A stretch of DNA of 64,000 nucleotides from an uncultured Akkermansia sp. (GTDB lineage: Bacteria > Verrucomicrobiota > Verrucomicrobiia > Verrucomicrobiales > Akkermansiaceae), in the NCBI GenBank assembly GCA_900548895.1, contig URLZ01000003.1, forward strand, positions 44,886 through 108,885. The letters are read 5' to 3'. This document shows, in pieces, positions 3,748 to 61,386 of the stretch. The notes under the pieces are model-generated. The model made no database searches, had not been told where the DNA came from, and saw only the letters and a program-made list of their open reading frames with translations. Position 1 is the first letter of the stretch. The number at the start of each line of letters is the position of its first letter. A program made the position numbers and the translations under genes.

Positions 3748-3754
3748 GGCTGCG

Positions 3755-3783
3755 AGTCTACCACGAATGTGAACCTTTGTCAA
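3755..3783 (-). promoter_or_regulatory. Promoter of the MarR-family gene (leaderless)
   Basis: On the minus strand TTGACA (3783-3778), a 17-bp spacer and TAGACT (3760-3755), then 7 nt to the ATG at 3747. The transcript would begin at or next to the start codon. Confidence 0.75.
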
Positions 3784-3947
3784 TATCAACCGCTCAGATG
3801 AAGTAACGTTTCGGGGCTGAAGCAATGCGCGGCAGGCGTCCCGAGGCTCGGGCTGCGAATCGAGCGGCGTCCTGAGCCCCGGTGGGGGCTTTCGCAGCCG
3901 TTCGCAGCGGTTGAGATGCGGCCTCAGCAGAGGATGAGGAGGCTGCT

Positions 3948-5207
3948 TCAGTGGCGGATGCGGCGGTCGTCCGCGGGCGGTTCGTCCTGAGGCTGACGGC
4001 GGCTCTCGGAGCCGCCTGCGGGAGAGGAGGAGCGGGGGTGGCGTTCGCTGACTCGGCCGCGGAAGCTGCGGCCGTTTTCCGCCGCGATGAAGCGCTCGCT
4101 GCGAATGCCGCGGCGGTGCAGGGCGGTGGAGAGGTCGATGAGGGTCTCATCGTAGCCCTCGTGGCCGAGTTGCCAGGTGCCGAAGTGGCAGCCGAGGGCC
4201 TGCTTCGCACGCAGGGCGAGAAAGATGTCGACGGCTTCATCGGGCGAGACGTGGTGGTGGCGCAGCCAGTCGGGGCGGTAGGCGCCGATGGGGATGAGGG
4301 CGAGGTCCGGCGCGCCGAGGCGGCGGCGGATGTGCTCGAAGGCGGGGCTGGCGGCGGTGTCGCCGACGTAGCAGATGCGCGGGCCGCCCGGCGACTCCAG
4401 CCAGTAGCCGCACCAGAGGGAGAGGTTGTGGTTGGATGAGCCGCGGTAGCGGTTGCTCCAGTGGTGGGCGGGCGTGAGGGTGATGCTGAGCTTGCCGGCG
4501 CTGACGCTCTCCCACCAGTCGCGCTCTTCGATGCGCGCGGGGCCGATGTGGTACTCCAGCAGGGCGCGCAGGCCGAGGGGGACGATGAAGAGGGGGTTGT
4601 CGCGCAGGCGGAGGCGCCGCAGGGTGGCGGCGTCAAAGTGATCGTAGTGGTCGTGGGTGAGCAGGCAGATATCGATGGGCGGCAGGTCCTCCCAGACGAT
4701 GCCGGGCGGGCGGTGCCGCGCGGGGCCGACGCCCTGCACGGGGCTCACGTAGTCGCTCCAGACGGGGTCGGTGAGGATGTTCAGCCCGGCGGTGCGGATG
4801 AGCATGGTGGAGTGATTGACCATGGTGCACTCCCAGTCCGGGCCGTCGACGCTCGGGGCGAGCTCGGGGCGGTAGGCGTTTTCGCTCACGCGGGGGTAGA
4901 GTCCGCGCTCACTCATGCCGAAGAGCCATTTGAAGCCGGAGCCGGTGCCGTGGATGACGGCGGTGCCGGGAAAGACGTTGTGAAAGCGCTTGCCGTCAAA
5001 GTGATCGGAGGGGGCGCCGCTCCAGCTGCCGCCGCGGCAGAGGGTGTGCGCCAGCAGGCGGTCGATGGAGTAGAGGGCGATGCCGACGGTCAGCAGGCCG
5101 AGCAGGGCGATGAGCAGACGCCTCCGTCCCTTGCTGAGGCGGCCGCTGCGGCGCTGCCTCCGAGGGGGGCTGAGCGGTGTGGCCGAGGCTCGTGCGGGGC
5201 TGTCCAT
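3948..5207 (-). CDS. Membrane-anchored metallo-beta-lactamase-fold hydrolase (NAPE-PLD/UlaG-like)
   Basis: 419 residues. A basic N-terminus is followed by one hydrophobic segment (about residues 29-50), suggesting an N-terminal membrane anchor with the enzyme in the periplasm. The catalytic domain has the metal motif THDHYDHFD (HxHxDH), a later GDT, and H/D ligands typical of the MBL superfamily. The order and spacing resemble N-acyl-phosphatidylethanolamine phospholipase D and UlaG-type lactonase relatives. True substrate unknown. The C-terminal 40 residues are low-complexity. The start is supported by a promoter whose -10 ends 6 nt upstream. The gene stands alone. Confidence 0.85.
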   Translation of the reverse strand: MDSPARASATPLSPPRRQRRSGRLSKGRRRLLIALLGLLTVGIALYSIDRLLAHTLCRGGSWSGAPSDHFDGKRFHNVFPGTAVIHGTGSGFKWLFGMSERGLYPRVSENAYRPELAPSVDGPDWECTMVNHSTMLIRTAGLNILTDPVWSDYVSPVQGVGPARHRPPGIVWEDLPPIDICLLTHDHYDHFDAATLRRLRLRDNPLFIVPLGLRALLEYHIGPARIEERDWWESVSAGKLSITLTPAHHWSNRYRGSSNHNLSLWCGYWLESPGGPRICYVGDTAASPAFEHIRRRLGAPDLALIPIGAYRPDWLRHHHVSPDEAVDIFLALRAKQALGCHFGTWQLGHEGYDETLIDLSTALHRRGIRSERFIAAENGRSFRGRVSERHPRSSSPAGGSESRRQPQDEPPADDRRIRH

Positions 5208-5213
5208 GTGTTT

Positions 5214-5242
5214 TGTCTACCACAGGCGGGCGCGGAACTCAA
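5214..5242 (-). promoter_or_regulatory. Promoter of the MBL-fold hydrolase (leaderless)
   Basis: Minus strand TTGAGT (5242-5237), 17-bp spacer, TAGACA (5219-5214), then 6 nt to the ATG at 5207. Confidence 0.65.
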
Positions 5243-5494
5243 GGGCAAACTCCGCCATGAGGCGTGGGCTCGCCTTCGCTCGGCTTCCCCGAGGCGGCGG
5301 CGCAGGAGGCAGGGAGAGGCGGTCGGGCGAGCTTCCGCGGGCGGCGAAGGAGGGCTCAAGGTGCCGTCTCGGGCCGCAGGGGCTCAGAGGCTGCGGCTAT
5401 GGGGCGTCTCTGTGTGCGTCGGCGGTGCGTCGGCGGTGCGCCGGTGGGGTGGCGTGTCAGGTGGCCGAGTGCGGCCGAGTGCAGCCGGCGGGTC

Positions 5495-6655
5495 TCAACT
5501 GAGGGCCAGCAGGCGCTCGCCGAGAAACCACCAGAGCGTGGCGGCGGTGATGAGGCAGGGGCCGAAGGGCATCGGGCGCCCGAAGCCGTGGCGCGCGGTG
5601 ATGGCGATGAGCAGCCCGAGCAGGGAGCCGGCGCTCAGGGCGATGAGGACGCCGTCCCAGCCGGTGAGGGCGCCGATGGCCATGGCGATCCAGGCGTCGC
5701 CGCTGCCCATGGCGCTGCTGCGCGTGGCGTAGCCGCGGCAGCTGCCCGTGAGCTGCTCGTGCGCTTCAAGGGGGATGCGCTGCCCGTCGGGCAGCAGGAG
5801 GGCGTCGGCGTGCAGTTGCAGCAGGCCCTCTTCGCGCGGGGCGCCGGGGAGCTCAAGGGTGGCGCCGCGCAGCAGGATGCGGTCGCCGATGTCGCGCAGC
5901 AGGCGGCTGAGCATGAGGCTTTCGCTGCCGATGCTCAGCTCGATGTCCTCACCGTCTGCCGCCTGGCGGAGCTGCCAGGTCTGCGGGCGGGCGTAGCGCT
6001 TGCTGCGCATGCCGAAGAGCAGCATACCGAGCGCGGCGGTGAGTTTGAGGAGCAGGTAGCCGAAGAGGGCGGATGCGGCGGCGTAGGGCAGCCCGGCGGC
6101 GGTGGCGGGGCTGAGCGGGTTTTGCAGCAGCCAGGGGTCGGCGGCGGCGGCCAGCAGGGCGGCGGCGGTGGCGGCCAGGGTGAGGCGGCGCATGACGGTC
6201 ATCGTCTCCAGATCGATGAAGAAGGTGGCTGTCATGGCGGCCATCCAGAGGGCGACCCAGAGGAGGGCGAGGAGGTGCGAGAAGCTCAGGCTGACGGCGA
6301 TGAAGAGGGCAGCGGTGAGGGCTTCGACGATGCAGTAGCGCGGCGAGATGGGCCGGTGGCAGCAGGCGCTGCGCCCGCGCAGCATCAGCCAGCTGATGAT
6401 GGGGATGTTGAGATACCAGGGGATGGGGGCTTTGCAGTTCGGGCAGAAGGAGCGCGCGGGCTGCGTGGTTTTCATCCCCCGCGGCAGGCGGTAGATGATG
6501 ACGTTGAGGTAGGAGCCGATGCAGGCGCCGATGAGTCCGAAGGCCGTGGGCAGGAGCCACGGGTGCAGCAGGCGCAGGGTGTTGGTGTAGTCGATGAGGC
6601 TCAGATACCAGCTTTCGGGTAGGGTGAGCGCATGGGTGAGGGCTTCGATGCTCAT
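5495..6655 (-). CDS. pilD: Type IV prepilin leader peptidase / N-methyltransferase (A24 family)
   Basis: 386 residues, polytopic inner-membrane protein. The N-terminal methyltransferase domain has RLPRG followed by the first cysteine pair (CPNC). The second pair, usually CRxC, reads SACC, so its first cysteine is replaced by serine. The two catalytic aspartates of the A24 protease are in FFIDLE and in GSGDAW (GxGD motif). Between them lies about 100 extra residues of soluble sequence, making the protein longer than typical PilD (about 260-290). It cleaves type IV pilin or type II pseudopilin leaders. The ATG at 6655 is chosen because the longer frame to 6757 would overlap the upstream gene by 65 nt. 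It is probably cotranscribed with the small membrane protein at 6693-7055. Confidence 0.9.
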   Translation of the reverse strand: MSIEALTHALTLPESWYLSLIDYTNTLRLLHPWLLPTAFGLIGACIGSYLNVIIYRLPRGMKTTQPARSFCPNCKAPIPWYLNIPIISWLMLRGRSACCHRPISPRYCIVEALTAALFIAVSLSFSHLLALLWVALWMAAMTATFFIDLETMTVMRRLTLAATAAALLAAAADPWLLQNPLSPATAAGLPYAAASALFGYLLLKLTAALGMLLFGMRSKRYARPQTWQLRQAADGEDIELSIGSESLMLSRLLRDIGDRILLRGATLELPGAPREEGLLQLHADALLLPDGQRIPLEAHEQLTGSCRGYATRSSAMGSGDAWIAMAIGALTGWDGVLIALSAGSLLGLLIAITARHGFGRPMPFGPCLITAATLWWFLGERLLALS

Positions 6656-6692
6656 GGCGGGGAGAGCGGGTGCCGGCGCGGATCGGCGGGGC

Positions 6693-7055
6693 TCAGTCCA
6701 TGCCGTGCACGGCGCGCCAGATGGCGTAGAGGTTGAAGAGTTTGAGCAGCAGGGCAAAGCTCATGCCCCAGGTGACGGCGATGGTGAGTTTGGTTTTGGG
6801 GCTCAGCTTGCGTGCGATGATGAGGGCGACGTAGCCCGTGCCGGAGAGCAGGGCGGCGACGATGAGGGCGGCGGTTTTGTTGAAGCCCAGCCAGTCCAGC
6901 GGCATGGAGATGGGCAGCATGAAGGCGAACATCAGAACGGCGGCGTTGCGGATGCCTTCGAGCCAGGCGACCACGGCAGAGGGAATCATGACACAAAGAA
7001 GTAGCGTAATTTTGGCCGCTTTGCTGTATCGTTCCTGCTGGGTGGGGATGTACAT
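6693..7055 (-). CDS. Small membrane protein of unknown function
   Basis: 120 residues with three to four hydrophobic segments (about residues 16-32, 37-54, 62-80, 90-106). No family is recognised. It is the first gene of a likely two-gene unit with the prepilin peptidase, 37 nt upstream of it, and is divergent from uvrB. A TTGACA/CATGAT promoter ends 11 nt before the ATG, so any leader would be only 4-5 nt. Confidence 0.7.
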   Translation of the reverse strand: MYIPTQQERYSKAAKITLLLCVMIPSAVVAWLEGIRNAAVLMFAFMLPISMPLDWLGFNKTAALIVAALLSGTGYVALIIARKLSPKTKLTIAVTWGMSFALLLKLFNLYAIWRAVHGMD

Positions 7056-7066
7056 GATGCTGCGCC

Positions 7067-7095
7067 ATCATGCCAGAGTTTCCCGCCTCTGTCAA
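7067..7095 (-). promoter_or_regulatory. Promoter of the membrane protein / pilD unit
   Basis: Minus strand TTGACA (7095-7090), 17-bp spacer, CATGAT (7072-7067). It lies in the 54-nt gap shared with the divergent uvrB gene. Confidence 0.65.
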
Positions 7096-7109
7096 TCGCT
7101 AGTTCCGCC

Positions 7110-9478: not shown

Positions 9479-9507
9479 TTGCCTTCTCGGGGGCAATTTG
9501 CTAAGAT
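9479..9507 (+). promoter_or_regulatory. Promoter of the RHH-mnmA unit (leaderless)
   Basis: TTGCCT (9479-9484), 17-bp spacer, TAAGAT (9502-9507), then 7 nt to the ATG at 9515. Confidence 0.65.
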
Positions 9508-13815: not shown

Positions 13816-13844
13816 TTGACCCTGCCGCGCCGCTGTGACAGAAT
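13816..13844 (+). promoter_or_regulatory. Promoter of the SRP RNA gene
   Basis: TTGACC (13816-13821), 17-bp spacer, CAGAAT (13839-13844). Predicted start near 13851. Confidence 0.65.
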
Positions 13845-13850
13845 GGCGCT

Positions 13851-13955
13851 GCCGTCGGGATCCCCCGGAGGCATGGCTGGAAAACCCCGCCAGGACCGAG
13901 AGGTAGCAACGGTATTCAGTCCATGCTTGTCGGGTGTGGTCTCGGCGGTTTTTTT
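13851..13955 (+). ncRNA. ffs: Signal recognition particle RNA, small bacterial (4.5S) type
   Basis: About 100 nt. The conserved domain IV core that binds Ffh is clear: gccaggaccgagaggtagc around 13889-13907 (compare GUCAGGUCCGGAAGGAAGCAGC in E. coli), including the asymmetric CAGG and symmetric loop bases. The ends close: positions from 13852 (ccgtcgggatc) pair with the 3' segment near 13938-13948 (ggtctcggcgg) over about 11 bp with G-U pairs. The RNA ends in a run of seven T, which serves as its terminator. It lacks the Alu domain. It pairs with Ffh for cotranslational membrane targeting. Confidence 0.9.
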
Positions 13956-18742: not shown

Positions 18743-18771
18743 CTACTAGCAGAAAGGGGGGGAGCTTTCAA
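18743..18771 (-). promoter_or_regulatory. Promoter of the GH2 gene
   Basis: Minus strand TTGAAA (18771-18766), 17-bp spacer, TAGTAG (18748-18743), then 9 nt to the ATG. Leader of at most 2-3 nt predicted. Confidence 0.6.
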
Positions 18772-21840: not shown

Positions 21841-21869
21841 AATCTACACCAATTCTGAACTGACGTCAA
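21841..21869 (-). promoter_or_regulatory. ispE promoter (leaderless)
   Basis: Minus strand TTGACG (21869-21864), 17-bp spacer, TAGATT (21846-21841), 6 nt to the ATG at 21834. Confidence 0.7.
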
Positions 21870-22053: not shown

Positions 22054-22080
22054 TTGCAAAACCCGAGCGGCTATTATAAG
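22054..22080 (+). promoter_or_regulatory. guaB promoter (leaderless)
   Basis: TTGCAA (22054-22059), a short 15-bp spacer and TATAAG (22075-22080) inside the AT-rich tattataag, then 7 nt to the ATG at 22088. Confidence 0.6.
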
Positions 22081-22087
22081 CTCCGCT

Positions 22088-23656: not shown

Positions 23657-24667
23657 ATGACATCCCGCATCCTTCTGCTCGCCGCTGCGGCACTCTGCGC
23701 GGCGTCCCTTCTGCAAGCCGCCGACGGCTCCTCCGCTGCCCCGGCGGCCACCGCCACAACCAAAAGCCCCGCGCCCCGTCAAGCCTCGCCCGCCCGGATG
23801 GCCCCCGCGCCCGCTCTTCCGGCGCCGCAGGGAGTCCCGGCCGAGCTGCCCGGCGGCTGGGTCTACAACTGGGGCGACGAATTCAACGGCGACGCACTCG
23901 ACGAGAGCAAGTGGAACTACGAGCTGGGCGTCGTCCGCAACCCCGGCAGCAAACAGGCCTACACCAAGGACTGCGTGAAACTGCGCGACGGCATGCTCGT
24001 CATCGAATCGCGCCACGAGCCCACGCCCAACATCAACCACCGCAAGCCGAGCCGCAACTGGATCGAAGCCATCGAGACCCAGCCCTACGCCAGCGGCTCG
24101 ATCACCTCGCGCGGCAAGCGCAGCTTCACACTGCCCTGCCGCATGGAGTTCCGCGCCCGCATCCCGCGCGGCAAGGGCGTCTGGCCCGCAATCTGGACGC
24201 TGCACGAGAACGCCTACGGATGGCCTGCCAATGGCGAGATTGACATTCTGGAGCACGTCTCGCAGGAGCCGAACCGCAACTACACCACCTTCCGCTGGGG
24301 TGAGAACGGCGAGCGCATTGAGCACAAGGTCATCGCCGTGAAGGACTTTGACGACTTCGCCCGCGACTTCCACACCTACGTCTTCGAGTGGGACGCGCAG
24401 CACATGAAGGTGTTCATCGACGGCGAGGAAATCGGCCGCATCAACATCAGCGATGCGCAATACCCCAACGGTGACAACCCGCTGCTGACGCCCTGCTACC
24501 TCATCATCAACACCGCGCTCGGCGGCGGTTGGGCCGAGGCCGCCGACCCGAAGGACTACCCGACGGAATTCCTCGTCGACTACGTGCGCTGCTACACCCG
24601 CCCCGCTGATTGTCCTCAGGCTGAAGGCGCGGAGAAGTGCCCGGCCAAGCCTGAGGCAGAGCACTGA
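23657..24667 (+). CDS. Secreted GH16-family glycoside hydrolase
   Basis: 336 residues. A signal peptide (about 1-21, ending LLQAA) is followed by a Pro/Ala-rich linker to residue 60 and a GH16 jelly roll: WGDEFNG near the start, WPAIWT, and catalytic GEIDILEH (E-x-D-x-x-E), ending with the last strand FLVDYVRCYT. Family members are endo-acting on beta-1,3/1,4-glucans, agar, carrageenan or similar polymers; the substrate is not determined. It is a close paralogue of the fragment at 1-615. The start follows a C/T-rich stretch with no Shine-Dalgarno. A terminator lies 75 nt downstream. Confidence 0.92.
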   Translation: MTSRILLLAAAALCAASLLQAADGSSAAPAATATTKSPAPRQASPARMAPAPALPAPQGVPAELPGGWVYNWGDEFNGDALDESKWNYELGVVRNPGSKQAYTKDCVKLRDGMLVIESRHEPTPNINHRKPSRNWIEAIETQPYASGSITSRGKRSFTLPCRMEFRARIPRGKGVWPAIWTLHENAYGWPANGEIDILEHVSQEPNRNYTTFRWGENGERIEHKVIAVKDFDDFARDFHTYVFEWDAQHMKVFIDGEEIGRINISDAQYPNGDNPLLTPCYLIINTALGGGWAEAADPKDYPTEFLVDYVRCYTRPADCPQAEGAEKCPAKPEAEH

Positions 24668-24968: not shown

Positions 24969-24997
24969 TTGACGCGCGCGGGCGCGCGTGCTAGGCT
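24969..24997 (+). promoter_or_regulatory. Promoter of the chagasin-like gene (leaderless)
   Basis: TTGACG (24969-24974), 17-bp spacer, TAGGCT (24992-24997), 7 nt to the ATG at 25005. Confidence 0.7.
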
Positions 24998-25705: not shown

Positions 25706-25733
25706 TTGCAATTTGGCGGCGCGCGTGTATAAT
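25706..25733 (+). promoter_or_regulatory. leuA promoter
   Basis: TTGCAA (25706-25711), 16-bp spacer, perfect TATAAT (25728-25733). Predicted leader about 21 nt. Confidence 0.8.
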
Positions 25734-30513: not shown

Positions 30514-30541
30514 TTGCCAAACGGCGAAAATATAGTAACAT
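30514..30541 (+). promoter_or_regulatory. Promoter of the str-S10 ribosomal operon
   Basis: TTGCCA (30514-30519), 16-bp spacer, TAACAT (30536-30541). The 5' leader of about 138 nt holds a small hairpin (cacgc/gcgtg with a 5-nt loop, 30557-30571) and ends with the Shine-Dalgarno AAGGA at 30678-30682. Confidence 0.65.
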
Positions 30542-35800: not shown

Positions 35801-35828
35801 TTATCGAACCCCTAACACGTAAGCTATC

Positions 35829-36662
35829 ATGTCCCTCAAGTCATTCAAGCCTACCACTCCGTCCAACCGCTACAAGGTTCTGCCCGGGTTCGACGAGATC
35901 ACCAAGAGCAAGCCTGAGAAGAGCCTGCTCGAGCCGCTCCGCAAGAGCGGTGGCCGCAACAACAACGGCCGCATCACCACCCGCCACATCGGCGGTGGCC
36001 ACAAGAAGCACTACCGCCTCGTCGACTTCCGCCGCACGAAGACGGAGCCCGCGACCGTGCTGGCCATCGAGTATGATCCGAACCGCACCTGCCGCATCGC
36101 GCTCGTGCAGTACACCGACGGCACGAAGAGCTACATCCTCGCCCCCGTGGGTCTCACCGTCGGCATGACGGTGCAGGCCGGTGAGAACGTGGCCCCCAAG
36201 GTCGGCAACGCCATGCCGCTCAAGAACGTCCCGCTCGGCACCGCCATCCACAACATCGAGGTGCGCCCCGGCACCGGCGGCAAGATTGCCCGCTCGGCCG
36301 GCCAGCAGGCCGTGCTCTCGAACCGCGACGGCGAGTACGCCCTCGTCAAGATGCCCTCCGGCGAGGTGCGCAAGTTCCGCGTTGACTGCTACTGCACCAT
36401 CGGTCAGGTCGGCAACACGCAGCACATGAACGAGTCCTCCGGCAAGGCGGGCCGCACGCGCTGGATGGGCATCCGCCCGACCGTGCGCGGTATGTGCATG
36501 AACCCCGTCGATCACCCCAACGGTGGTGGTGAGGGTAAGTCCAAGTCCGGTGGCGGTCGCCAGCACCTGAAGTCCCCGTGGGGTCACGTCAAGGGCCAGA
36601 AGACCCGCCGCATCCGCAAGCCCAGCGATGTCTTCATCGTGCAGCGCCGCAAGTCCAAGTAA
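35829..36662 (+). CDS. rplB: 50S ribosomal protein L2
   Basis: 277 residues, standard. L2 is needed for subunit association and peptidyl transfer. [28 protein letters not shown] near the N-terminus, and the C-terminal [20 protein letters not shown] with the catalytically relevant histidine, are intact. 28-nt spacer without a Shine-Dalgarno. Confidence 0.98.
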
Positions 36663-36688
36663 CCTAACCCTCAACATCATTACATACA

Positions 36689-36958
36689 ATGGGACGTTCC
36701 CTCAAAAAAGGACCCTTCGTCAGTCAGTCTCTTCTCGACAAGGTTGACGCCCAGCTTCAGAGCGGCGACCGCAAGCCGATCAAGACCTGGAGCCGCGCCT
36801 CGATGATCATCCCTGACTTCGTGGGCATCACCTTCCTCGTGCACGCCGGCAAGAGCTTTGCCACGGTGTACGTGACGGAGAACATGGTCGGCCACAAGCT
36901 CGGCGAATTCGCTCCGACGCGCATCTTCAAGGCGCACGGCGGCATCGGTAAGAAGTAA
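36689..36958 (+). CDS. rpsS: 30S ribosomal protein S19
   Basis: 89 residues, standard. [11 protein letters not shown] and the C-terminal [16 protein letters not shown] are diagnostic for this 30S head protein. In most bacteria rplV follows directly; here an unrelated 711-bp gene intervenes. No Shine-Dalgarno before the ATG. Confidence 0.98.
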
Positions 36959-36981
36959 GACCAACATCTGATCCTCACATC

Positions 36982-37692
36982 ATGCTCGCGCCTCATCGCT
37001 GCACGGCTCTGCTCGCCCTGGCCCTTCTCGGGGCAGGCGTGCCGGCCGCGGCAGACGGTGAGGCCGAGGATGCCAGAGACGCCAAAATCACCTCGCTTGA
37101 GCGTCAGCTCACCACCCTGCGTGAGAGCTACGCGATGGCGCGATCCGATGCGGATGCGGCGCGCAGCCAGCTGCGGGAAATCCGGGCACGCCTGGAAGCC
37201 CTCGGCGGCTCCGCCCTCGGGGACAGCGAAGAGCGGCTCATCGAAACGGTGGCCCAACTTCGCAGCACCCAGGAGCAGCTTGAGCTCACCCGGCAAAGCC
37301 TGCTTCGCCTCACCGCAGCACTCAGCACCTACCTCCAGTCCGCCCTCGTGGAGGACGCCGAGGCAAGGGCCGGCCTCGAAGCCGCGATGCTCGATGCTGA
37401 CGTAGCCCTCGGGCTCCGCCAGCCGCAGCAGGACGAGAACACCGGGACGCTCGATGAAGCCACCGTGCTGAGCATCGACGCCGAATCCGGCCTCATCGTC
37501 ATCAACGCGGGCCGCGAGGCCGGGGTGAAGGTGGGCATGCCCATGCTCATCACCCGGGGGGCCGAGACGGTGGCCGAGGCCATCGTCACCGACGTTCGCA
37601 AGAAGGTGGCCGGCATGCTGGTGCGCAAGCACCTCAACCCCACGCTCAAGGTCAGCGTCGGCGATCAGGCTTCTCTGACATCCAATGACTAA
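36982..37692 (+). CDS. Exported coiled-coil protein inserted in the ribosomal operon
   Basis: 236 residues, family not recognised. A hydrophobic N-terminus ending PAAADG looks like a cleaved signal peptide (about 1-24). Residues about 30-115 are heptad-rich coiled coil (ITSLERQLTTLRESYAMARSDADAARSQLREIRARLEAL and a second segment). The C-terminal 90 residues form a small beta-rich domain (VLSIDAESGLIVINAGREAGVKVGMPMLI) similar in pattern to the beta domain of MreC/FlgT-type proteins. It lies 23 nt after rpsS and 22 nt before rplV on the same strand, so it must be cotranscribed with ribosomal genes. Composition resembles its neighbours. Function unknown; envelope-associated by inference. Confidence 0.75.
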   Translation: MLAPHRCTALLALALLGAGVPAAADGEAEDARDAKITSLERQLTTLRESYAMARSDADAARSQLREIRARLEALGGSALGDSEERLIETVAQLRSTQEQLELTRQSLLRLTAALSTYLQSALVEDAEARAGLEAAMLDADVALGLRQPQQDENTGTLDEATVLSIDAESGLIVINAGREAGVKVGMPMLITRGAETVAEAIVTDVRKKVAGMLVRKHLNPTLKVSVGDQASLTSND

Positions 37693-37714
37693 TTCTTCAA
37701 CAAATACCATAACC

Positions 37715-38053
37715 ATGGAAGTGAAAGCAGTATACAAGAATGCTCGCATCTCTGCGAAGAAGATGCGCGATGTAGCCGCCGCCGTTCAGGGTATGTCTGT
37801 CTCGCAGGCGACCGACGTGCTGAGCTACTCCCCGAAGAAGGGCGCTTATCTCCTCAATAAGACGCTCAAGGCCGCCGTGGCCAATGCTGAGAACAACAAT
37901 GGCCTTGCCGCCGATGAGCTCGTGCTCAAGAGCGTCATGGTTGACGAAGGTCCGACCTTCCGCCGCACGATGGCTCGTGCCCGCGGTTCTGCGAACATGA
38001 TTCGCAAGCGCACCTCGCACATCACCGTCATCCTCGCTGACTCCAAGGCATAA
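37715..38053 (+). CDS. rplV: 50S ribosomal protein L22
   Basis: 112 residues. L22 lines the exit tunnel. VYKNARISAKKMRDVAAAVQGMSV and the C-terminal RARGSANMIRKRTSHITVIL identify it. The ATG at 37715 gives the normal N-terminus; an in-frame ATG at 37685 would overlap the preceding gene by 8 nt and adds a non-conserved peptide. No Shine-Dalgarno. Confidence 0.96.
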   Translation: MEVKAVYKNARISAKKMRDVAAAVQGMSVSQATDVLSYSPKKGAYLLNKTLKAAVANAENNNGLAADELVLKSVMVDEGPTFRRTMARARGSANMIRKRTSHITVILADSKA

Positions 38054-38074
38054 CCTACACATCTACATAACACT

Positions 38075-38797
38075 ATGGGACAGAAAGTTAATCCGATCGG
38101 TTTCCGTCTTGCCGTTACCAAAGACTGGCGCTCCAAGTGGTATGCGACGGGCAAGGACTATGCCACGAAGCTCCACGAGGACCTCAAGATTCGCAAGTTC
38201 ATCAAGGACTTTACGACGAACCTCAACAGCGATCTCAAGGGCTCGACGCCCGCCATCTCGCGCATCACGATCGAGCGCGCTTGGAACAGCGTCCGCGTCA
38301 CGATCGCCACGGCTCGCCCCGGCCTCGTCATCGGCCCGAAGGGCAAGAACATCGAAGAGATGACCACCGCGCTCAGCAAGCTTTGCGGAGGCGCTCAGGT
38401 CAAGCTCGACATCATGGAGATCCGCCAGCCCGAGCTCGACGCTCAGCTCGTGGCCGAGAACATCGCCGCTCAGCTCGAGCGCCGCGTCTCCTTCCGCCGC
38501 GCCATGAAGCGTGCCGTGCAGGTCGCCATGGACTTCGGCGCCGAGGGTATCCGCGTGCGCTGCGCCGGCCGCCTCGGCGGTGCGGACATCGCCCGCGCCG
38601 AGCAGTACCGCGAAGGCAAGGTGCCGCTGCAGACGCTGCGCGCCCCCATCGACTACGGCTTCGCTGAGGCCCGCACGCTCTACGGCGTGATCGGCGTCAA
38701 GTGCTGGATCAACAAGCGCCCCGACCTCGCCGGCTCGGCTCCCTCCGGCCGCAGCGGTCGCCCGCAGCGCCGCCGCGACTCCCGTCGCGATGCCTGA
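38075..38797 (+). CDS. rpsC: 30S ribosomal protein S3
   Basis: 240 residues. S3 contributes to the mRNA entry site. [14 protein letters not shown] at the N-terminus, the KH domain motif [13 protein letters not shown], and the C-terminal [10 protein letters not shown] are conserved. The tail is Arg-rich. 21 nt after rplV, without a Shine-Dalgarno. Confidence 0.98.
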
Positions 38798-38836
38798 ACC
38801 CCATGAACCTTTAACGAGTAACAGGAGAATAAGACT

Positions 38837-39271
38837 ATGCCTTTAATGCCTAAACGAGTCAAGGGCAACCTCCGCAAGATGCACCGCGGCAACCGCGGCG
38901 GCAACGCAACGAGCGGTGATTATGTTGCCTTCGGTGAATTCGGCCTGCAGGTTCTCACCCGCGGCTGGGTCACCAACAACCAGATCGAAGCCTGCCGTAT
39001 CGCCATCAACCGCTATCTGCGCCGCCGCGGCCGTGTCTTCATCCGCATCTTCCCGCAGAAGTCCTTCACCAAGCGTCCGCCGGACACCCGTATGGGTAAG
39101 GGTAAGGGTGCCGTTGAGGGTTGGGTGGCCGTCTGCCGCCCCGGCAACATCATGTTCGAGGTCGGTGGTGTGACCGAGTCCGCCGCCCGTGAGGCCCTTC
39201 GCCTTGCTTCGAACAAGCTGGGCATCCGCACGCGCTTCGTCTACCGCCAGGGCTTTGAGCCCCAGGGTTAA
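38837..39271 (+). CDS. rplP: 50S ribosomal protein L16
   Basis: 144 residues. L16 supports the A-site tRNA region. [51 protein letters not shown] and the [12 protein letters not shown] segment are typical. AGGAG precedes the ATG by 10 nt. Confidence 0.97.
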
Positions 39272-39300
39272 TCCTTAACACAACACCGAATTTTATCACT

Positions 39301-41960: not shown

Positions 41961-41989
41961 TTGCCTGCGGGGCGACTTCGCTGTATAAT
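41961..41989 (+). promoter_or_regulatory. hemL promoter (leaderless)
   Basis: TTGCCT (41961-41966), 17-bp spacer, perfect TATAAT (41984-41989), 7 nt to the ATG at 41997. Confidence 0.82.
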
Positions 41990-49480: not shown

Positions 49481-49509
49481 TTCCCTCACGCCTCTTCCTG
49501 TGGTATACA
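49481..49509 (+). promoter_or_regulatory. Promoter of the LolA-like gene (leaderless)
   Basis: TTCCCT (49481-49486), 17-bp spacer, TATACA (49504-49509), 6 nt to the ATG at 49516. Confidence 0.6.
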
Positions 49510-54903: not shown

Positions 54904-54932
54904 AGTATACACCGTTTGACGTCATTTGACCA
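54904..54932 (-). promoter_or_regulatory. Promoter of the glyoxalase II-like gene (leaderless)
   Basis: Minus strand TGGTCA (54932-54927), 17-bp spacer, TATACT (54909-54904), 6 nt to the ATG at 54897. Confidence 0.65.
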
Positions 54933-56003: not shown

Positions 56004-56041
56004 AAGCTTGTAATTCGGTTAAAGGTGTTTCGCGGGGCGAT

Positions 56042-56069
56042 ATTTTACATGAAAACAGAGCTGAGTCAA
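56042..56069 (-). promoter_or_regulatory. rpmB promoter
   Basis: Minus strand TTGACT (56069-56064), 16-bp spacer, TAAAAT (56047-56042). Confidence 0.75.
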
Positions 56070-56190: not shown

Positions 56191-56268
56191 GCGATTTGTG
56201 CGGAAGAGCGGGGACGTAACGGTGCGCTCCGCCCGTTTCCGAGGTTCAAAGTGAATGATATTCAGACG

Positions 56269-57135
56269 ATGGAGAAGATGAACGGAAAAGGTTTGTCGGT
56301 GGCGCTGCTCGCGGCGCTGTGTCTCGGCGGGATGACCTCCTGCGGCTGGGATGATGACTATTACTACGGCGGCTACAGTCCCTATTACGGTTCAAGCGCC
56401 TGGAATTCGGCCTGGTACGATTCCAGCGGTTACCCGATTTACGGCTACAGCAACGGCCGCCCGGTGTACGGCTACACCTCGTCCGGGCAGGCCATTTACA
56501 CGCTGGCGGGGCTCGGCGCCGGCTGCTTTGTGCCGTCTTGGAGCCCGGCCCCGTGGTACACGAGCAACTACCACTATGTGCACAACGTCGTGCGCACGGA
56601 TCGGCCGCGCCACGTTCCGGCGGATCATCGCCCGACCGTGCGCCCGCCGCGCCCGGTGAGTCGCGTCGATAACGACCGAATTTTTCAGGAGCACCGCAAA
56701 ATCTGGAACGAGCGCAAGCCGGGTGCCGCGCCCAAGCCGGGTGACCGCCGCCCCGATTTCAGACGCCCGGAGCCCGGTAAACCCGATGCAAAAAAGCCAG
56801 GCTCTTGGCGGCCGGAGTTGAATCGCCCGGGCTCCGGCAAGCCGCTGGCCGGCCGTGAGGATCACCATGCCCAGCGCCCGATCGGTTCGACGCGCCCGAA
56901 TGTCGGGGCGGACCGCCCGTCTCGGCCGGGCGTCGGTTCGAATCGACCGTCGCGACCTGAGGCCGGTGCCAGCCGCCCGTGGAGGCCGAGTTTCGGCTCG
57001 GATCGCCCGTCGCGTCCCGATGCCGGTGCTAGCCGTCCTTCTCGTCCGAGCGCCGGCCCCAGCCGCCCCTCGCGCCCTGATGCCGGTGGCGCCCGCCCGC
57101 CGCGTCCCTCGGGCCCGGAGCCGAAAAAGTCCTGA
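56269..57135 (+). CDS. Proline/arginine repeat lipoprotein
   Basis: About 288 residues. A lipoprotein signal ends in lipobox GMTSC. The next 80 residues are Tyr/Gly/Ser-rich (DDDYYYGGYSPYYGSS). From about residue 115 the protein is Pro/Arg-rich, ending with at least six 10-residue repeats of the form RPSRPxAGxS. This region is highly basic and probably unfolded, suited to binding acidic polymers or cell wall. Start uncertain among 56251, 56269 and 56278. No family recognised. Confidence 0.7.
   Translation: MEKMNGKGLSVALLAALCLGGMTSCGWDDDYYYGGYSPYYGSSAWNSAWYDSSGYPIYGYSNGRPVYGYTSSGQAIYTLAGLGAGCFVPSWSPAPWYTSNYHYVHNVVRTDRPRHVPADHRPTVRPPRPVSRVDNDRIFQEHRKIWNERKPGAAPKPGDRRPDFRRPEPGKPDAKKPGSWRPELNRPGSGKPLAGREDHHAQRPIGSTRPNVGADRPSRPGVGSNRPSRPEAGASRPWRPSFGSDRPSRPDAGASRPSRPSAGPSRPSRPDAGGARPPRPSGPEPKKS
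56913..57110 (+). repeat. 30-bp in-frame coding repeats
   Basis: Degenerate 30-bp units encoding RPSRPxAGxS-type decapeptides, about six to seven copies at the 3' end of the lipoprotein gene. Units differ at many third positions, so the array is old or selected at the protein level. Confidence 0.75.
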
Positions 57136-57210
57136 GCTCGCTCGCGGTGATCGCGCGGAGCCCTGACGGGGGCGTTGAGCCGCCCGCGTCGGCGCGTTCG
57201 TGTTGACGTT

Positions 57211-57246
57211 AATCCCCGGCCTCACCTGTTCGTGAGGTCGGGGATT
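57211..57246 (+). terminator. Terminator of the repeat lipoprotein gene
   Basis: 15-bp stem (aatccccggcctcac/gtgaggtcggggatt, one G-U pair) with a 6-nt loop. The T run is interrupted (gttgttgg). It may also stop the converging phage-type unit. Confidence 0.7.
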
Positions 57247-57447
57247 GTTGTTGGCGGGCGCTGTCGGCCCCGACAGTCGGCGTTACGCTGTCTGCACCCC
57301 TGCGGCACTGAGCCGAGTCCGTGTGCGGCGGCGTTGCGCTTATGCCGTGGCGGGACGGCGCTGCGCTCGTGCGGTGCTGCGCCGAATCTCATGCGGCGCC
57401 GTGTCTGTCCGGATCAAGCGCTGGTGGAGCGGAAGCCGTTGCGGCGA
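57247..57447. other. Region downstream of the scaffold-like gene
   Basis: 200 nt between the lipoprotein terminator and the scaffold-like stop codon. A major capsid gene would be expected after the scaffold gene on the minus strand; none is here. Confidence 0.5.
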
Positions 57448-58644
57448 TCAGAGGCGGCGCCCGAAGGCGAGGCGGTCGTACTGCTCGTTGGCGTAGCGGT
57501 GCTGCGGGTGGTTGCTGCGCATGTAGGCCTCGTGCAGGGGGTGGCTCGGGTCTGCCGCGATGCGGCGGGCCTCCGCCGGGCCGTCCGGCGTGCTGCCTGT
57601 GTGCAGGGGAGCCTCGTGCGTGCGCCTGGCGGCGGTGAGCATGAGGCGCGCGAAGTCCGCATTGGCTCGCAGGGCGGGGTTGTCCATGAGGCCGGCGACG
57701 TCCACGCCGGCTTCGTCGCCGAGGCGGCTGAGGAAGTTGCCGATGTCCTGCATGTTGTCCTCGTACTGCTCGCCCCACTCCTGCTGCAGGCTGGCGTCGG
57801 CCTGTTCGATGGCCTGCTGCTCAACCTCGCGGCTGTGTTGCAGCATGCGGGTGCCCAGAGCGCTGTAGCGTTCGCTGAGGGCCTGCATGGCGCGCGGCGG
57901 CACGCCGTAGCGGTAGGCGACGCCGGCGAGGTCTTCCGCAAGGGCGTCATCCCAGATTTCATCCGCAGCGCCCTCGGGGCGCGTGAGGTGGTAGTCCTCG
58001 GCTTTTTCGGGCAGGCCCACGGCGAGGCGGAAGGCTTCCATGCGCCGCGGGTCGGCGGGGTCCGGGTAGCCTTTGAGGCGCTCGAGGTGGGCGTAGCTCT
58101 TGGCGAGGGCTTCGGGGCGGCGGAACTTGGCGAGGCTTGCGGCGTAGGGCTCGAGGTCGCTAAACTGCTTGTACCACTCGGGGCAGAAGCTGCCGTCTCC
58201 CTCCAGAAGCCCGGGGGCTCCCGACACGGGGGCGCCGGAGGGGCCGGCGGGGGGCTGGGCTCCCGGCTGCGGGGGCAGGGGGGCTGCGCTGCCGTCTCGC
58301 CGAGCGATCAGGGCGCCTGCGGCGTCCATGGCCGCCGCCTCGCGTGCGGCGCGCGGGCTCGGGTAGCCGGCTTCGCGGGGCGCGGCGCTCGGGGAGCCCG
58401 GGCCGCGGTTCGCCAAGGCGGAGCGGGGATCTGCGTTGTCCGGGTAACGTTCGCCCGGGTAGGCGTCGCCCGTGTAGCGGCTCCCGGGGTCGTGATAGTC
58501 GAGGTAGCGGCCCTCGGCTGCGGCTGCGCTGTCCCCGGGGTAGGTGCCTGGGGCGTCGGGTGCAGCTGTTGCGTCGGCTTCGGCTGCGCCGCGGCGCAGG
58601 CGTGGATCAGTTGTTGTCCGAATCATGGTCGTGTTCGTATTCAT
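57448..58644 (-). CDS. Phage capsid-assembly scaffold-like protein
   Basis: 398 residues. The first 170 are low-complexity (Pro, Ala, Gly, Tyr). The rest matches the pattern of scaffold-like proteins of podoviruses: EALAKSYAHLERLKGYPDPADPRRMEAFRLAVGLPEKAEDYHL, then long helices (VEQQAIEQADASLQQEWGEQYEDNM) and a C-terminal basic segment that would contact capsid protein. Start is MNTNTTM at 58644 or MIRTTT at 58626; either overlaps the preceding gene's 3' end by 20-38 nt, as in compact phage operons. The major capsid gene that should follow is missing. Confidence 0.7.
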   Translation of the reverse strand: MNTNTTMIRTTTDPRLRRGAAEADATAAPDAPGTYPGDSAAAAEGRYLDYHDPGSRYTGDAYPGERYPDNADPRSALANRGPGSPSAAPREAGYPSPRAAREAAAMDAAGALIARRDGSAAPLPPQPGAQPPAGPSGAPVSGAPGLLEGDGSFCPEWYKQFSDLEPYAASLAKFRRPEALAKSYAHLERLKGYPDPADPRRMEAFRLAVGLPEKAEDYHLTRPEGAADEIWDDALAEDLAGVAYRYGVPPRAMQALSERYSALGTRMLQHSREVEQQAIEQADASLQQEWGEQYEDNMQDIGNFLSRLGDEAGVDVAGLMDNPALRANADFARLMLTAARRTHEAPLHTGSTPDGPAEARRIAADPSHPLHEAYMRSNHPQHRYANEQYDRLAFGRRL

Positions 58645-58912
58645 TGTTGTTTTCTGTGGCTTCCTGCCGGGCCAGATCGAGCTGGCGGCGTATGACGAGG
58701 AAGACTTCTCGCTGGGCGTCCCGGCGCATGGCGTCGAGGGCGTCGTAGTGGCCGGCCTTGCCCTGAAAGACGGGCAGGTCGGTTTCAAATCGGTCTTCGA
58801 GGCGTTGCAGGACGGCTTCTCCGTCGGCTGTGCCGAGTACGGAGAGCAGGCGCCGCCTGTCGCTGCGGGCTTGTAGCGCGAGTTCGCGCAGGGTTCGGGG
58901 TTGCAGGTTCAT
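58607..58912 (-). CDS. Small phage protein, Bbp19-like
   Basis: 101 residues. VLGTADGEAVLQRLEDRFETDLPVFQGKAGHYDALDAMRRDAQREVFLVIRRQLDLA resembles the Bbp19 family found between portal and scaffold genes of podoviruses. The tail is acidic and Asn-rich. It overlaps the start of the scaffold-like gene and lies 125 nt after the portal gene. Role unknown. Confidence 0.65.
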   Translation of the reverse strand: MNLQPRTLRELALQARSDRRRLLSVLGTADGEAVLQRLEDRFETDLPVFQGKAGHYDALDAMRRDAQREVFLVIRRQLDLARQEATENNNEYEHDHDSDNN

Positions 58913-59037
58913 GTCTGCGTAGGTGTCGGGTGGGTTTTGTGTTGGTGTGGGTTGTGGCGGAGCCGATCCCGCTCAGCGTCGGCCCGGGTTCATCGGATGC
59001 GGCTCGAGTTCATCAGAGGCGTTCATAGAGGCGTTCG

Positions 59038-60693
59038 TCAGAGGAGGCCGGCGCCTGCTCCCGAGGCGGCGGCTCCCGCCATGCCGGCGGAGGCGGCTCC
59101 GGAGCTCCCGGTGCTGCCGGCGGCGGAGGCGTCGCTGCTCGACGCGCTGCCGTTCAGGGCGCTCAGGGCGTTCTGTCGCTGTTTGCGCAGGCGCTTGACG
59201 CTGCTGAGCGAGCGCAGGATTTCCTCGGGGGCGCCGTTGAGGCGGGCGGCGAGGCGGAAGCTGCGCTCCAGGTCGATGTGGTCGCTGATGGTGGGGTCGA
59301 GATTGCTGAGCTGCTGCATGAGTTGCAGGGTGTTGCTGATGCCTTCGCTCTGAATGCGACGCATGATGGTAGCGATGCGCCCCTGATAGACGACGTGGGG
59401 CTCGGCGATGCTCAGCTCGCCCCGGCGATCGGCTTTCATCACGCTGGATGGGGGCTGCGGGAACTTGCCCTGCCGGAAGAGCAGCGCGAAGAGTCGCTCC
59501 ATGAAGGGCTGAAAGTCGGTGGCGAAGAGGGTGAAGGAGGGCGAGAAGAGCATGACGCGCTCGTTCTCTCTCGCGTAGACTTCCGTGGCGCTCATCTGCT
59601 GCTTGCGCTCGCTCCAGAGCTCGAGCATGGGGACGAAGAAGGCGCGGTTGATGGCGTCCTGTTTCTGCTTGAGGCGATCCATGCCGACGTCGTAGCGCCC
59701 CTGTGTGGCCCATTCGCGCGGGAAGCCGAGGCTGGCGCTCTCCGGGTTGATGAGGGTGCGCCCGCCGGCGCGCAGATCCACTTCGCCGACCTGATTGGCC
59801 AGCTCGAGGATACGCGGGAAGGCGGCGATTTCTCCCAGGGTGTCGAGGATGCGGTTGAGGAACTGCGCCTGCCGGATGTCGGGGTAGACGAGTCGCGCGG
59901 GGGCGAGCCCGTAGGGGCCGTCGCCCCATTTGAGGAAGCGGGTGACCATGTAGGGCAGTTCGCGGTAGCCGCCTTCTTCGACGACGCAGGAGTCGTCGAG
60001 GCTGTAATAGATGCTGCTCCAGGGCATGTTGCCGGCGTTGTCGCGGCGGCGATCCCGCTTTTCGCGCGGGCGCACGATGTGCAGAAAGCGCAGGCTGCCC
60101 TCGTGGGGCCTGCGACCGCTGTCCAGCAGGGCGCGGGCGCGCGGGCCGAGGGCTTTGCGGCCGAACTGGCCCGCGGCCTGATGCGGGGTGAGGCAGAATT
60201 CGCGCATGTAGGTGTCGATGCTGCCTTCGTCGTTTTCCGCACAGACGAACTGCCCGCAGGGGATGTGGCGGAAGAGCAGGCGCCCGCTGCGGCTCGTGCC
60301 GCTGAAGAGGGAGCCCGTGCCGAGGCCGACTCGGTCCAGAAAGCACTCGTGCAGCTCGGTGTAGAAGTTGCTGAGAGCGAGCTCGCGGTTGGCGATTTCC
60401 GAGCAGCTGGCGTACCAAGACTCGGCCTCGTCGCCGGCGTCGGCGTCCGGGCTGCTCCACTTGAACCACAGTTCGTTGCTCGGGGTCATGTACGACATGT
60501 GGCCGCTGGCGAGCTTCTGGCAGGCTTCGACGGCGGTGGTGTCGCTGAGGTCGCGGCTGCGGTCGGCGTCCGGCAGCTCGCCGCGATCGCTCGGGCGGCC
60601 GGGCAGCACGTAGCGGCGCAGCTCGTCCCACCAGCTTTCCCAAGGCGCGCGGATGGCCTTGAGGGCGTTGTAGTCGGCAAGGATGGTGTCCAT
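59038..60693 (-). CDS. Phage portal (head-to-tail connector) protein, podovirus type
   Basis: 551 residues, the typical size for T7-like connectors. Recognisable blocks: WWDELRRYVLPGR, ASGHMSYMTPSNELWF, FGTGSLF-type LGTGSLFSGT, PYMVTRFLKWGDGPYGLAPARLVYPDIRQAQFLNRI, and the C-terminal MSATEVYARENERVMLFSPSF. The dodecameric portal is the DNA entry and exit channel. No frameshift or stop. Its ATG is 5 nt after the preceding small gene. The C-terminal 40 residues are Ser/Ala/Gly-rich. Confidence 0.88.
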   Translation of the reverse strand: MDTILADYNALKAIRAPWESWWDELRRYVLPGRPSDRGELPDADRSRDLSDTTAVEACQKLASGHMSYMTPSNELWFKWSSPDADAGDEAESWYASCSEIANRELALSNFYTELHECFLDRVGLGTGSLFSGTSRSGRLLFRHIPCGQFVCAENDEGSIDTYMREFCLTPHQAAGQFGRKALGPRARALLDSGRRPHEGSLRFLHIVRPREKRDRRRDNAGNMPWSSIYYSLDDSCVVEEGGYRELPYMVTRFLKWGDGPYGLAPARLVYPDIRQAQFLNRILDTLGEIAAFPRILELANQVGEVDLRAGGRTLINPESASLGFPREWATQGRYDVGMDRLKQKQDAINRAFFVPMLELWSERKQQMSATEVYARENERVMLFSPSFTLFATDFQPFMERLFALLFRQGKFPQPPSSVMKADRRGELSIAEPHVVYQGRIATIMRRIQSEGISNTLQLMQQLSNLDPTISDHIDLERSFRLAARLNGAPEEILRSLSSVKRLRKQRQNALSALNGSASSSDASAAGSTGSSGAASAGMAGAAASGAGAGLL

Positions 60694-60698
60694 AGTGC

Positions 60699-60929
60699 TC
60701 AGCCGAGGGTGCTGTTGCCGCCGGGGGTGTTGTTGCTGCCCGCCGTGTTGAGCGAGCTGCGCTTGTTGCCGCTGCGCGACAGGATGGTGGAGAGCAGCCC
60801 GCGCCGCGTCGAGTCCTTCTGCTGCTGGCCGGCGGCGACGTTCTCGTCTTGGCTGACGGTGACAACGGGAGGCTCGGTCTTGACGGTGGTCGGTGCCGAG
60901 GGCGTTTTGAACAGGTTGGAGAATCCCAT
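60699..60929 (-). CDS. Small phage-type protein of unknown function
   Basis: 76 residues, hydrophilic, rich in Ser, Thr, Asn and Gly (MGFSNLFKTPSAP at the start, SNNTPGGNSTLG at the end). Similar short Gly/Ser-rich proteins often precede the portal gene in podoviral cassettes. It is 14 nt after the previous gene and 5 nt before portal. Confidence 0.6.
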   Translation of the reverse strand: MGFSNLFKTPSAPTTVKTEPPVVTVSQDENVAAGQQQKDSTRRGLLSTILSRSGNKRSSLNTAGSNNTPGGNSTLG

Positions 60930-60943
60930 GGTGGTGTTTTGTG

Positions 60944-61351
60944 TTATGCGTTGGTTTCGGTGTCGGTTTCGATGTTGTTGCCGGGGCGGGGAGCGCCGCC
61001 GTGGCGCAAGGCGCGCCGCCAGCTGTGCCGGTGAGGGCGGCCGGAGCGGCTTCCCCGCTGAAAGCAGAGCAGGGGCAGGGGAGGCAGCGTGTGCCCAAGT
61101 TGCAGGGCGAGCTGCAGGTCGCCGACCAGCAGGTGCACGTACCAGGCGTCCGCCGCGGGCTCGTCCTGTGCCAGCTGCTCGGCCCAGCTCTCGGGCCGAT
61201 GGCTGCAGACCGGGCGCATCAGGGCGAACAAGCGCGGCGTGCTCATGACGATTCCCCGCGGGTTGCGGCAGAGCGCGGCCACGTCGGCGGCCATGCTGCG
61301 TCCGCTCCCCGCGTAATAGCGGGCGGCGAGCTCTCTTGCGTCCTTGCTCAT
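60944..61351 (-). CDS. Phage-cassette protein of unknown function
   Basis: 135 residues. The core (residues about 1-100: ELAARYYAGSGRSMAADVAALCRNPRGIVMSTPRLFALMRPV and DAWYVHLLVGDLQLALQLGHTLPPLPLLCFQRGSRS) looks like a compact folded domain with an HLLVGDL motif. No function is known to me. First gene of the minus-strand unit. A TGGAAA/TATGCT promoter ends 6 nt before the ATG at 61351. Confidence 0.6.
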   Translation of the reverse strand: MSKDARELAARYYAGSGRSMAADVAALCRNPRGIVMSTPRLFALMRPVCSHRPESWAEQLAQDEPAADAWYVHLLVGDLQLALQLGHTLPPLPLLCFQRGSRSGRPHRHSWRRALRHGGAPRPGNNIETDTETNA

Positions 61352-61357
61352 GCCTCC

Positions 61358-61386
61358 AGCATATCCCGTGTCGCCGCGCTTTTCCA
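61358..61386 (-). promoter_or_regulatory. Promoter of the phage-type unit (leaderless)
   Basis: Minus strand TGGAAA (61386-61381), 17-bp spacer, TATGCT (61363-61358), 6 nt to the ATG at 61351. Confidence 0.5.

What the first reader, a model, noticed from the sequence alone, without database searches (positions are those of the whole stretch)
3748..61386. Leaderless promoter architecture in at least eleven unrelated genes
Seen directly: the -10 hexamer ends exactly 6 or 7 nt before the start codon at 3747 (MarR), 5207 (MBL), 9515 (RHH-mnmA), 21834 (ispE), 22088 (guaB), 25005 (chagasin-like), 41997 (hemL), 43492 (exported protein), 49226 (GTG, TIM-barrel), 49516 (LolA-like), 54897 (MBL) and probably 61351 (phage unit), and 9 nt before for the GH2 gene. 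Nearly all have a matching -35 box at 17 bp. Since bacterial transcripts start about 6-8 nt after the -10 box, these mRNAs should begin at or within a base of the start codon. Such constant spacing across both strands and functions argues against chance. It implies that leaderless initiation is a default mode in this genome, in contrast to rpsA, leuA, rpsL and rpmB, which keep leaders.
Basis: partly seen in the sequence, partly recalled or inferred. Interest (0 to 1): 0.8.

Follow-up and report, generated by a model that had tools for sequence, protein, structure and literature searches.

The report
Leaderless promoters in an uncultured Akkermansia
In this gut bacterium a dozen genes have their promoter so close to the start codon that the messenger RNA should begin at, or within a base or two of, the protein-coding sequence; this is a known way of starting genes that looks unusually common in this branch of Akkermansia.

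Summary
The window is an uncultured Akkermansia (guaB 97% identical to Ca. A. intestinigallinarum). With a promoter model trained only on relatives, 12 of 12 listed starts have their best promoter 5-7 nt upstream, spacer 17 bp. Twelve ATGs lie 5-8 nt after a strong site; 100 simulated windows gave mean 0.48, maximum 3. An annotation-free distance plot over 700 kb of four close relatives peaks at 6 nt (39, against about 7 per distance); 150 kb of E. coli shows no peak. Promoter-to-ATG spacing is conserved for guaB (56 of 56 Akkermansia-like loci) and ispE (15 of 16), even where the protein N-terminus moved. Leaderless or nearly leaderless transcription is the best reading. It is a known kind: Cappable-seq found 10% of A. 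muciniphila start sites leaderless (PMC4782308). "Default mode" overstates it: about 12 of 22 gene-linked promoters in the window, about 13% of called genes in relatives. Apparently new is a gradient: gap-6 sites are three to five times denser per Mb in this branch than in A. muciniphila. No transcript 5' end was measured.

The parts
3755..3783 (-). promoter of MarR gene (start 3747), -10 TAGACT, gap 7
   Evidence: score 21.7, spacer 17
5214..5242 (-). promoter of MBL-fold gene (start 5207), -10 TAGACA, gap 6
   Evidence: score 14.5, spacer 17
9479..9507 (+). promoter of RHH-like gene upstream of mnmA (start 9515), -10 TAAGAT, gap 7
   Evidence: score 16.7; in the one relative found (L138) the box TAGAAT is at gap 9
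21841..21869 (-). promoter of ispE (start 21834), -10 TAGATT, gap 6
   Evidence: score 16.9; gap 6-7 in 15 of 16 homologous loci
22054..22082 (+). promoter of guaB (start 22088), -35 TTGCAA, -10 TAAGCT, gap 5
   Evidence: score 14.8; TTG at -34 and TA of the box at gap 5 in 56 of 56 Akkermansia-like loci
24969..24997 (+). promoter of chagasin-like gene (start 25005), -10 TAGGCT, gap 7
   Evidence: score 17.5
41961..41989 (+). promoter of hemL (start 41997), -10 TATAAT, gap 7
   Evidence: score 19.8; gap 6 in L117 and L109
43457..43485 (+). promoter of exported-protein gene (start 43492), -10 TATTAT, gap 6
   Evidence: score 15.8; TAGAAT at gap 6 in L005
49234..49262 (-). promoter of TIM-barrel gene with GTG start (49226), -10 TACACT, gap 7
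   Evidence: score 17.7; L005 also has GTG, with TATGCT at gap 6
49481..49509 (+). promoter of LolA-like gene (start 49516), -10 TATACA, gap 6
   Evidence: score 13.3
54904..54932 (-). promoter of second MBL-fold gene (start 54897), -10 TATACT, gap 6
   Evidence: score 12.3
61358..61386 (-). promoter of the 'phage unit' ORF (start 61351; no Pfam hit), -10 TATGCT, gap 6
   Evidence: score 13.9
18743..18771 (-). promoter of the GH2 gene (start 18733), gap 9: predicted leader of 2-3 nt
   Evidence: score 13.6; GH2 by Pfam
975..1003 (+). leadered contrast: rpsA promoter, gap 97 to start 1101
   Evidence: score 19.8; S1 domains
25706..25733 (+). leadered contrast: leuA promoter, gap 28 to start 25762
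   Evidence: score 17.7; LeuA domains
30514..30541 (+). leadered contrast: rpsL promoter, gap 144 to start 30686
   Evidence: score 15.6; S12
56042..56069 (-). leadered contrast: rpmB promoter, gap 38 to start 56003
   Evidence: score 13.6; L28

Best explanation
The twelve genes are read from ordinary sigma-70-type promoters (TTG..., 17 bp, TANNNT) placed so that RNA polymerase starts at, or within a base or two of, the first base of the start codon. The mRNA then has no leader and no Shine-Dalgarno site, and the ribosome must bind the 5'-terminal AUG directly. Shown here: promoter motif, fixed spacing, its conservation, and the lack of room for a Shine-Dalgarno site. Inferred: the transcription start position (from the usual 6-8 nt distance) and the mode of ribosome binding (established knowledge of leaderless mRNAs). 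In this Akkermansia branch it is a large minority mode beside leadered genes, most of which lack a Shine-Dalgarno motif.
For: 12 of 12 starts have their best promoter at gap 5-7, spacer 17. 12 ATGs at gaps 5-8 against Markov mean 0.48, maximum 3 of 100. In 700,100 b of four close relatives ATG counts by gap are 5:7, 6:39, 7:14, 8:14, against 7.4 per gap at 21-45. At gap 6, 34 of 39 ATGs open a frame of at least 60 codons or run off the stretch, and 33 of 34 have a pyrimidine at -1, against 34 of 51 at gaps 9-15 (P = 0.0004). All 11 Akkermansia-like genomes searched have more gap-6 than gap-12 sites. guaB TTG lies at exactly -34 in 56 of 56 Akkermansia-like and 22 of 23 other loci; ispE keeps gap 6-7 in 15 of 16 loci, in 8 of them with the ATG 1-14 codons further upstream in the protein. 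hemL, the exported protein and the GTG-start TIM gene show gap 6 in the one or two relatives found. A. muciniphila: 10% of mapped start sites leaderless, E. coli 0.4% (PMC4782308, passages read). Shine-Dalgarno-like 4-mers upstream of 6% of 447 genes in relatives (distal control 11%), against 47% of 128 (control 4%) in E. coli.
Against: No transcript 5' end is measured here. The peak has a tail to 11 nt, so some of these genes may carry leaders of 1-5 nt; RHH is at gap 9 in its one relative. Gap 5 for guaB is at the short edge for a start exactly at the A. In A. muciniphila itself, the species with transcript data, the motif peak is weak (25, 31 and 12 sites at gaps 6, 7 and 12). The pyrimidine at -1 is common before ATG starts in general here (246 of 309 first-start ATG genes). 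A gene-first count with crude calls showed little in the window.
Confidence: 0.9

Rival explanations
1. The genes have very short leaders (1-6 nt) rather than none, because polymerase often starts 7-9 nt after the -10 box or the true box lies slightly further upstream (as TATTAT at gap 10 for guaB).
For: Tail of ATG counts at gaps 7-11 in relatives (14, 14, 15, 19, 11); GH2 at gap 9 and another gene at gap 11 in the window; RHH at gap 9 in L138.
Against: The peak is exactly at gap 6 (39), with a pyrimidine at -1 in 33 of 34, the usual YR start context, placed at the A of ATG. A leader this short could hold no Shine-Dalgarno site, so the biology would hardly differ.
Confidence: 0.25
2. Chance matches of a loose motif, or an artefact of in-frame stop codons: TAG or TAA inside the -10 box forces the called start to lie just downstream.
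For: TANNNT is degenerate and often contains a stop codon in frame at gap 6. At low score cut-offs the window's excess at gaps 5-8 is small.
Against: The distance plots use no gene calls and gap 12 is frame-matched; gap 6 exceeds gap 12 in 95 of 115 genomes. The -35 element at 17 bp is independent of stop codons. Markov control, conserved spacing, no peak in E. coli.
Confidence: 0.03
3. The true starts lie further downstream and the genes have normal leaders.
For: Start codons were not tested by proteomics.
Against: guaB, ispE, hemL, the exported protein, TIM and RHH align from residue 1 with relatives; in ispE the promoter-proximal ATG is kept even where the N-terminus is extended.
Confidence: 0.04

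Closest known systems
Leaderless transcripts of Akkermansia muciniphila (Cappable-seq, PMC4782308)
   Same: Same genus; start sites at annotated start codons, -35/-10 promoters and YR initiator (passages read).
   Different: Experimental there, 10% of start sites (886 high-confidence positions); here prediction in an uncultured species whose branch has three to five times more gap-6 promoters per Mb.
TA-led leaderless genes (Zheng et al. 2011, PMC3160421)
   Same: TANNNT with its first T around 12 bp before the start codon, which is gap 6 here (passages read).
   Different: Their list of phyla with leaderless genes does not name Verrucomicrobia; a -35 element is not mentioned in the passages I read.
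Leaderless genes of Actinobacteria and Deinococcus-Thermus
   Same: Large minority of genes (around 20% and around 40% in PMC3160421, passages read), many functions, -10 next to the start.
   Different: Another phylum; here Shine-Dalgarno-like motifs are not enriched upstream of starts in relatives.
SD-scarce genomes with kept CCUCC, including Akkermansia (PMC10783764)
   Same: Few mRNAs able to pair with the anti-SD (passages read); depletion in relatives also seen here.
   Different: The passages I read say nothing of promoter position in Akkermansia.

Membership tests
Leaderless (TA-led) bacterial genes | -10 box (TANNNT) around 12 bp (first T) before the start codon | tested here: met
   Gap 5-7 in 12 of 12; two of the 12 hexamers end in A
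Leaderless (TA-led) bacterial genes | Excess over chance and a position-specific peak | tested here: met
   E. coli without a peak
[quoted passage not shown]
   No RNA data; inferred from spacing and YR context
Leaderless (TA-led) bacterial genes | Translation from a 5'-terminal AUG or GUG | not testable with these tools
   Needs reporter or ribosome profiling
Sigma-70-type promoter | -35 TTG(ACA-like) at 16-18 bp from the -10 | tested here: met
   Spacer 17 best in 12 of 12 (the model favours 17); 28 of 34 gap-6 sites in relatives have spacer 17
Shine-Dalgarno-led genes | GGAG-like motif a few nt upstream of the start within the mRNA | tested here: not met
   No room at gap 5-7; in relatives 6% of 447 genes against 11% control

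The most novel reading that the evidence does not exclude
One branch of Akkermansia (the window's, seen here only in genomes assembled from gut metagenomes) has expanded leaderless promoters to the commonest identifiable promoter type, three to five times denser per Mb than in A. muciniphila, alongside Shine-Dalgarno motifs reduced below background, so that much of its core gene set (guaB, ispE, ispG, aroB, fabD-like, bamA-like) depends on leaderless initiation.
Probability: 0.4. Interest if true: 0.55.

Novelty: new member of a known kind. Interest (0 to 1): 0.37.

Why it matters
It extends a known but little-studied initiation mode to a mostly uncultured gut lineage, names conserved core genes that use it, and suggests that its frequency changes several-fold within one genus whose cultured member can be tested directly. 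It also warns that start-codon and promoter predictors built on Shine-Dalgarno motifs may misplace starts here.

Tried and rejected
Chance and the in-frame-stop artefact were tested and rejected. The gene-first distance count with my own gene caller was too crude: three of the 12 listed genes are absent from its list and it gave broad shapes elsewhere. In Persicirhabdus and Roseibacillus that count showed TANNNT at gap 6 in 5 of 130 and 6 of 102 genes, but the annotation-free plot showed no clear peak there; I leave those two genera open. An A-rich leader in place of Shine-Dalgarno in leadered genes: upstream regions are G-poor and C/A-rich rather than strongly A-rich; not pursued. Kept anti-SD: GGATCACCTCC occurs in 11 of 13 genomes searched, but I did not check that the hits lie in 16S genes. 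Paper searches for Akkermansia, Verrucomicrobia or Planctomycetes with leaderless, start-site, Shine-Dalgarno, dRNA-seq or promoter-motif terms listed 16 of 16, 20 of 341, 12 of 134, 7 of 7 and 1 of 1 papers; one search listed 1 of 1. Among the titles listed, PMC4782308, PMC10783764 and PMC3160421 looked on the subject, and I read passages of those three only.
Full report
Where it comes from. No whole genome is held for the window. guaB is 97% identical to Candidatus Akkermansia intestinigallinarum (L045, G001) and 85-94% to many Akkermansia genomes assembled from gut metagenomes, so the window is taken as an uncultured Akkermansia; its G+C is 64.7%.

Observation. I read the upstream sequence of all 12 listed starts and scored them with a promoter model trained on 61 sites from four relatives (G001, G002, G003, G005), none from the window. 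The best site in the 60 nt upstream lies at gap 5 (guaB), 6 (both MBL genes, ispE, exported protein, LolA-like, phage unit) or 7 (MarR, RHH, chagasin-like, hemL, TIM-barrel), always with a 17-bp spacer (12 of 12; the model favours 17). The window holds 38 sites above score 12 where simulated windows hold 11.2 on average (maximum 21); 12 ATGs lie at gaps 5-8, simulated mean 0.48 and maximum 3 of 100. At lower cut-offs the contrast is weaker: above 9, 16 ATGs at gaps 5-8 against 6-12 in the other four-base bins. Promoters of rpsA, leuA, rpsL and rpmB lie 97, 28, 144 and 38 nt from their starts. By my reading of that list, protein-gene-linked sites of score about 12 or more number about 22: 12 leaderless, 3 with gaps of 9-16 and 7 with longer leaders.

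Distance plot. In 700,100 b from the four close relatives the counts are 5:7, 6:39, 7:14, 8:14, 9:15, 10:19, 11:11, 12:5, and 7.4 per gap at 21-45. Of the 39 ATGs at gap 6, 34 open a frame of at least 60 codons or run off the stretch, 28 of 34 with spacer 17. The base before ATG is a pyrimidine in 33 of 34, against 34 of 51 at gaps 9-15 (Fisher P = 0.0004), as expected if transcription starts at the A in a YR context; among all first-start ATG genes it is 246 of 309, which includes leaderless ones. E. coli, 150 kb, has no peak (2.00 per gap at 5-8, 1.73 at 9-45). Weaker or against: A. muciniphila (400 kb) has a small rise (gap 7: 11), A. glycaniphila (120 kb) a modest one, Persicirhabdus and Roseibacillus none clear, and a gene-first count with crude calls gave little in the window.

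Genome-wide counts. With a fixed 17-bp spacer, gap-6 counts in whole genomes are 65-85 for G001-G006, 39 and 62 for G007 and A. glycaniphila (G008), 25-36 for three A. muciniphila-like genomes (G009-G011), and 2-35 for five other Verrucomicrobia (G012-G016). In the first eight, gaps 7 and 12 are both lower than gap 6; in G009 gap 7 (31) exceeds gap 6 (25). Net of the backwards-pattern control, gap 6 gives 26-36 per Mb, 15-17, 7-9 and -0.3 to 4.4. G+C alone does not explain it: the G003 stretch is 56.9% G+C and the A. muciniphila stretch 55.9%, yet the densities are 31.7 and 7.2. Other promoter shapes in A. muciniphila could explain part of the difference. Across 115 genomes drawn from the phylum, four of them Akkermansia genomes already named above, gap 6 gives 2900 sites, gap 12 gives 1561 and the backwards control 907; gap 6 is higher in 95, equal in 5 and lower in 15; 59 reach P < 0.05, 18 survive division by 115, and 2 go the other way at P < 0.05.

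Conservation. In the 79 of 80 guaB loci with enough upstream sequence, the first T of the -35 TTG lies exactly 34 nt before ATG in 56 of 56 with guaB identity of at least 74% and in 22 of 23 more distant ones; the TA of the -10 box is at gap 5 in all 56. In the 23 distant loci the -10 region has changed (consensus TCTATTGACT). For ispE, 15 of 16 loci have TANNNT at gap 6 or 7 before an in-frame ATG, with a TTGAC- or TTCAC-type -35 at 17 bp; in 8 of them that ATG lies 1-14 codons upstream of the point aligned to the window's start, so the protein's beginning moved with the promoter. The miss is L068. hemL (L117, L109), the exported protein and the GTG-start TIM gene (L005) show gap 6; RHH in L138 shows gap 9. 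The chagasin-like, LolA-like, MarR and phage-unit genes had no match in the loci I held, and the two MBL genes only partial ones, so for those six conservation is untested.

Function. The genes concerned are unrelated. Of 34 gap-6 ORFs in relatives, 30 are complete and 28 were scanned; in the 25 families shown of 55, each is hit by one member only. They include GcpE (ispG), DHQ synthase (aroB), Acyl_transf_1 (fabD-like), Omp85 and POTRA (bamA-like), Dus, GHMP kinase (ispE) and aminotransferase III (hemL) (the gene names in brackets are mine).

Initiation context. Shine-Dalgarno-like 4-mers (GGAG, GAGG, AGGA) occur at -18 to -5 in 6% of 447 genes of the close relatives (11% in a distal control) and in 5% of 284 A. 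muciniphila genes (10%), while the same pipeline gives 47% of 128 (4%) in E. coli. In the window it is 12% of 57 (control 7%), and 27% of its 15 operon-internal genes, so the depletion is not visible in the window itself. The relatives' figures agree with the report that Akkermansia is SD-scarce (PMC10783764, passages read).

Mechanism. A sigma-70-type promoter is placed so that its start point falls on the start codon; the mRNA begins with AUG (or GUG) and is taken up by the ribosome through that terminal codon. Promoter, spacing and, for the genes with relatives at hand, conservation are shown; start point and ribosome uptake are inferred from established knowledge.

Comparison with the known. 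Zheng et al. 2011 define such genes by TANNNT around 12 bp upstream; their list of phyla with leaderless genes does not name Verrucomicrobia (passages read). The Cappable-seq paper PMC4782308 reports 10% leaderless start sites in A. muciniphila, from 886 high-confidence positions, against 0.4% in E. coli (passages read). So the phenomenon is known in the genus. In the listings of the searches (two of them capped) I saw nothing on the several-fold gradient inside Akkermansia or on the fixed promoter-to-ATG distance of guaB.

Verdict. Observation confirmed, interpretation partly supported: real leaderless or near-leaderless genes, a large minority mode rather than a default, a new member of a known kind.

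Noticed in passing
window 35821-39290, minus strand: Promoter-like sites above score 12 point against the S12-led gene run (35821, 35848, 36661, 37692, 37729, 39290), between genes. Possible antisense transcription, or chance in A+T-richer gaps.
   Followed up: no
window 13844-13949: The SRP RNA (13854-13949) has a promoter-like site whose -10 box ends at 13844, 9 nt before the Rfam match: a rough local check that transcription starts within about 10 nt of the box.
   Followed up: partly
ispE loci L011, L018, L019, L021, L022, L026, L033, L047: ispE homologues carry N-terminal extensions of 1-14 codons that begin at the promoter-proximal ATG: start-codon shifts that track the promoter.
   Followed up: partly
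G001-G011 against G012-G016: Shine-Dalgarno-like motifs are below the distal control in the stretches of G001, G002, G003, G005 and G009, and gap-6 promoter density falls from the window's branch to A. muciniphila to other Verrucomicrobia.
   Followed up: partly
window 1-615 (cut at the window's start) and 23657-24667: Two genes look like relatives of one secreted glycoside hydrolase (similar stretches; family not tested by a call).
   Followed up: no
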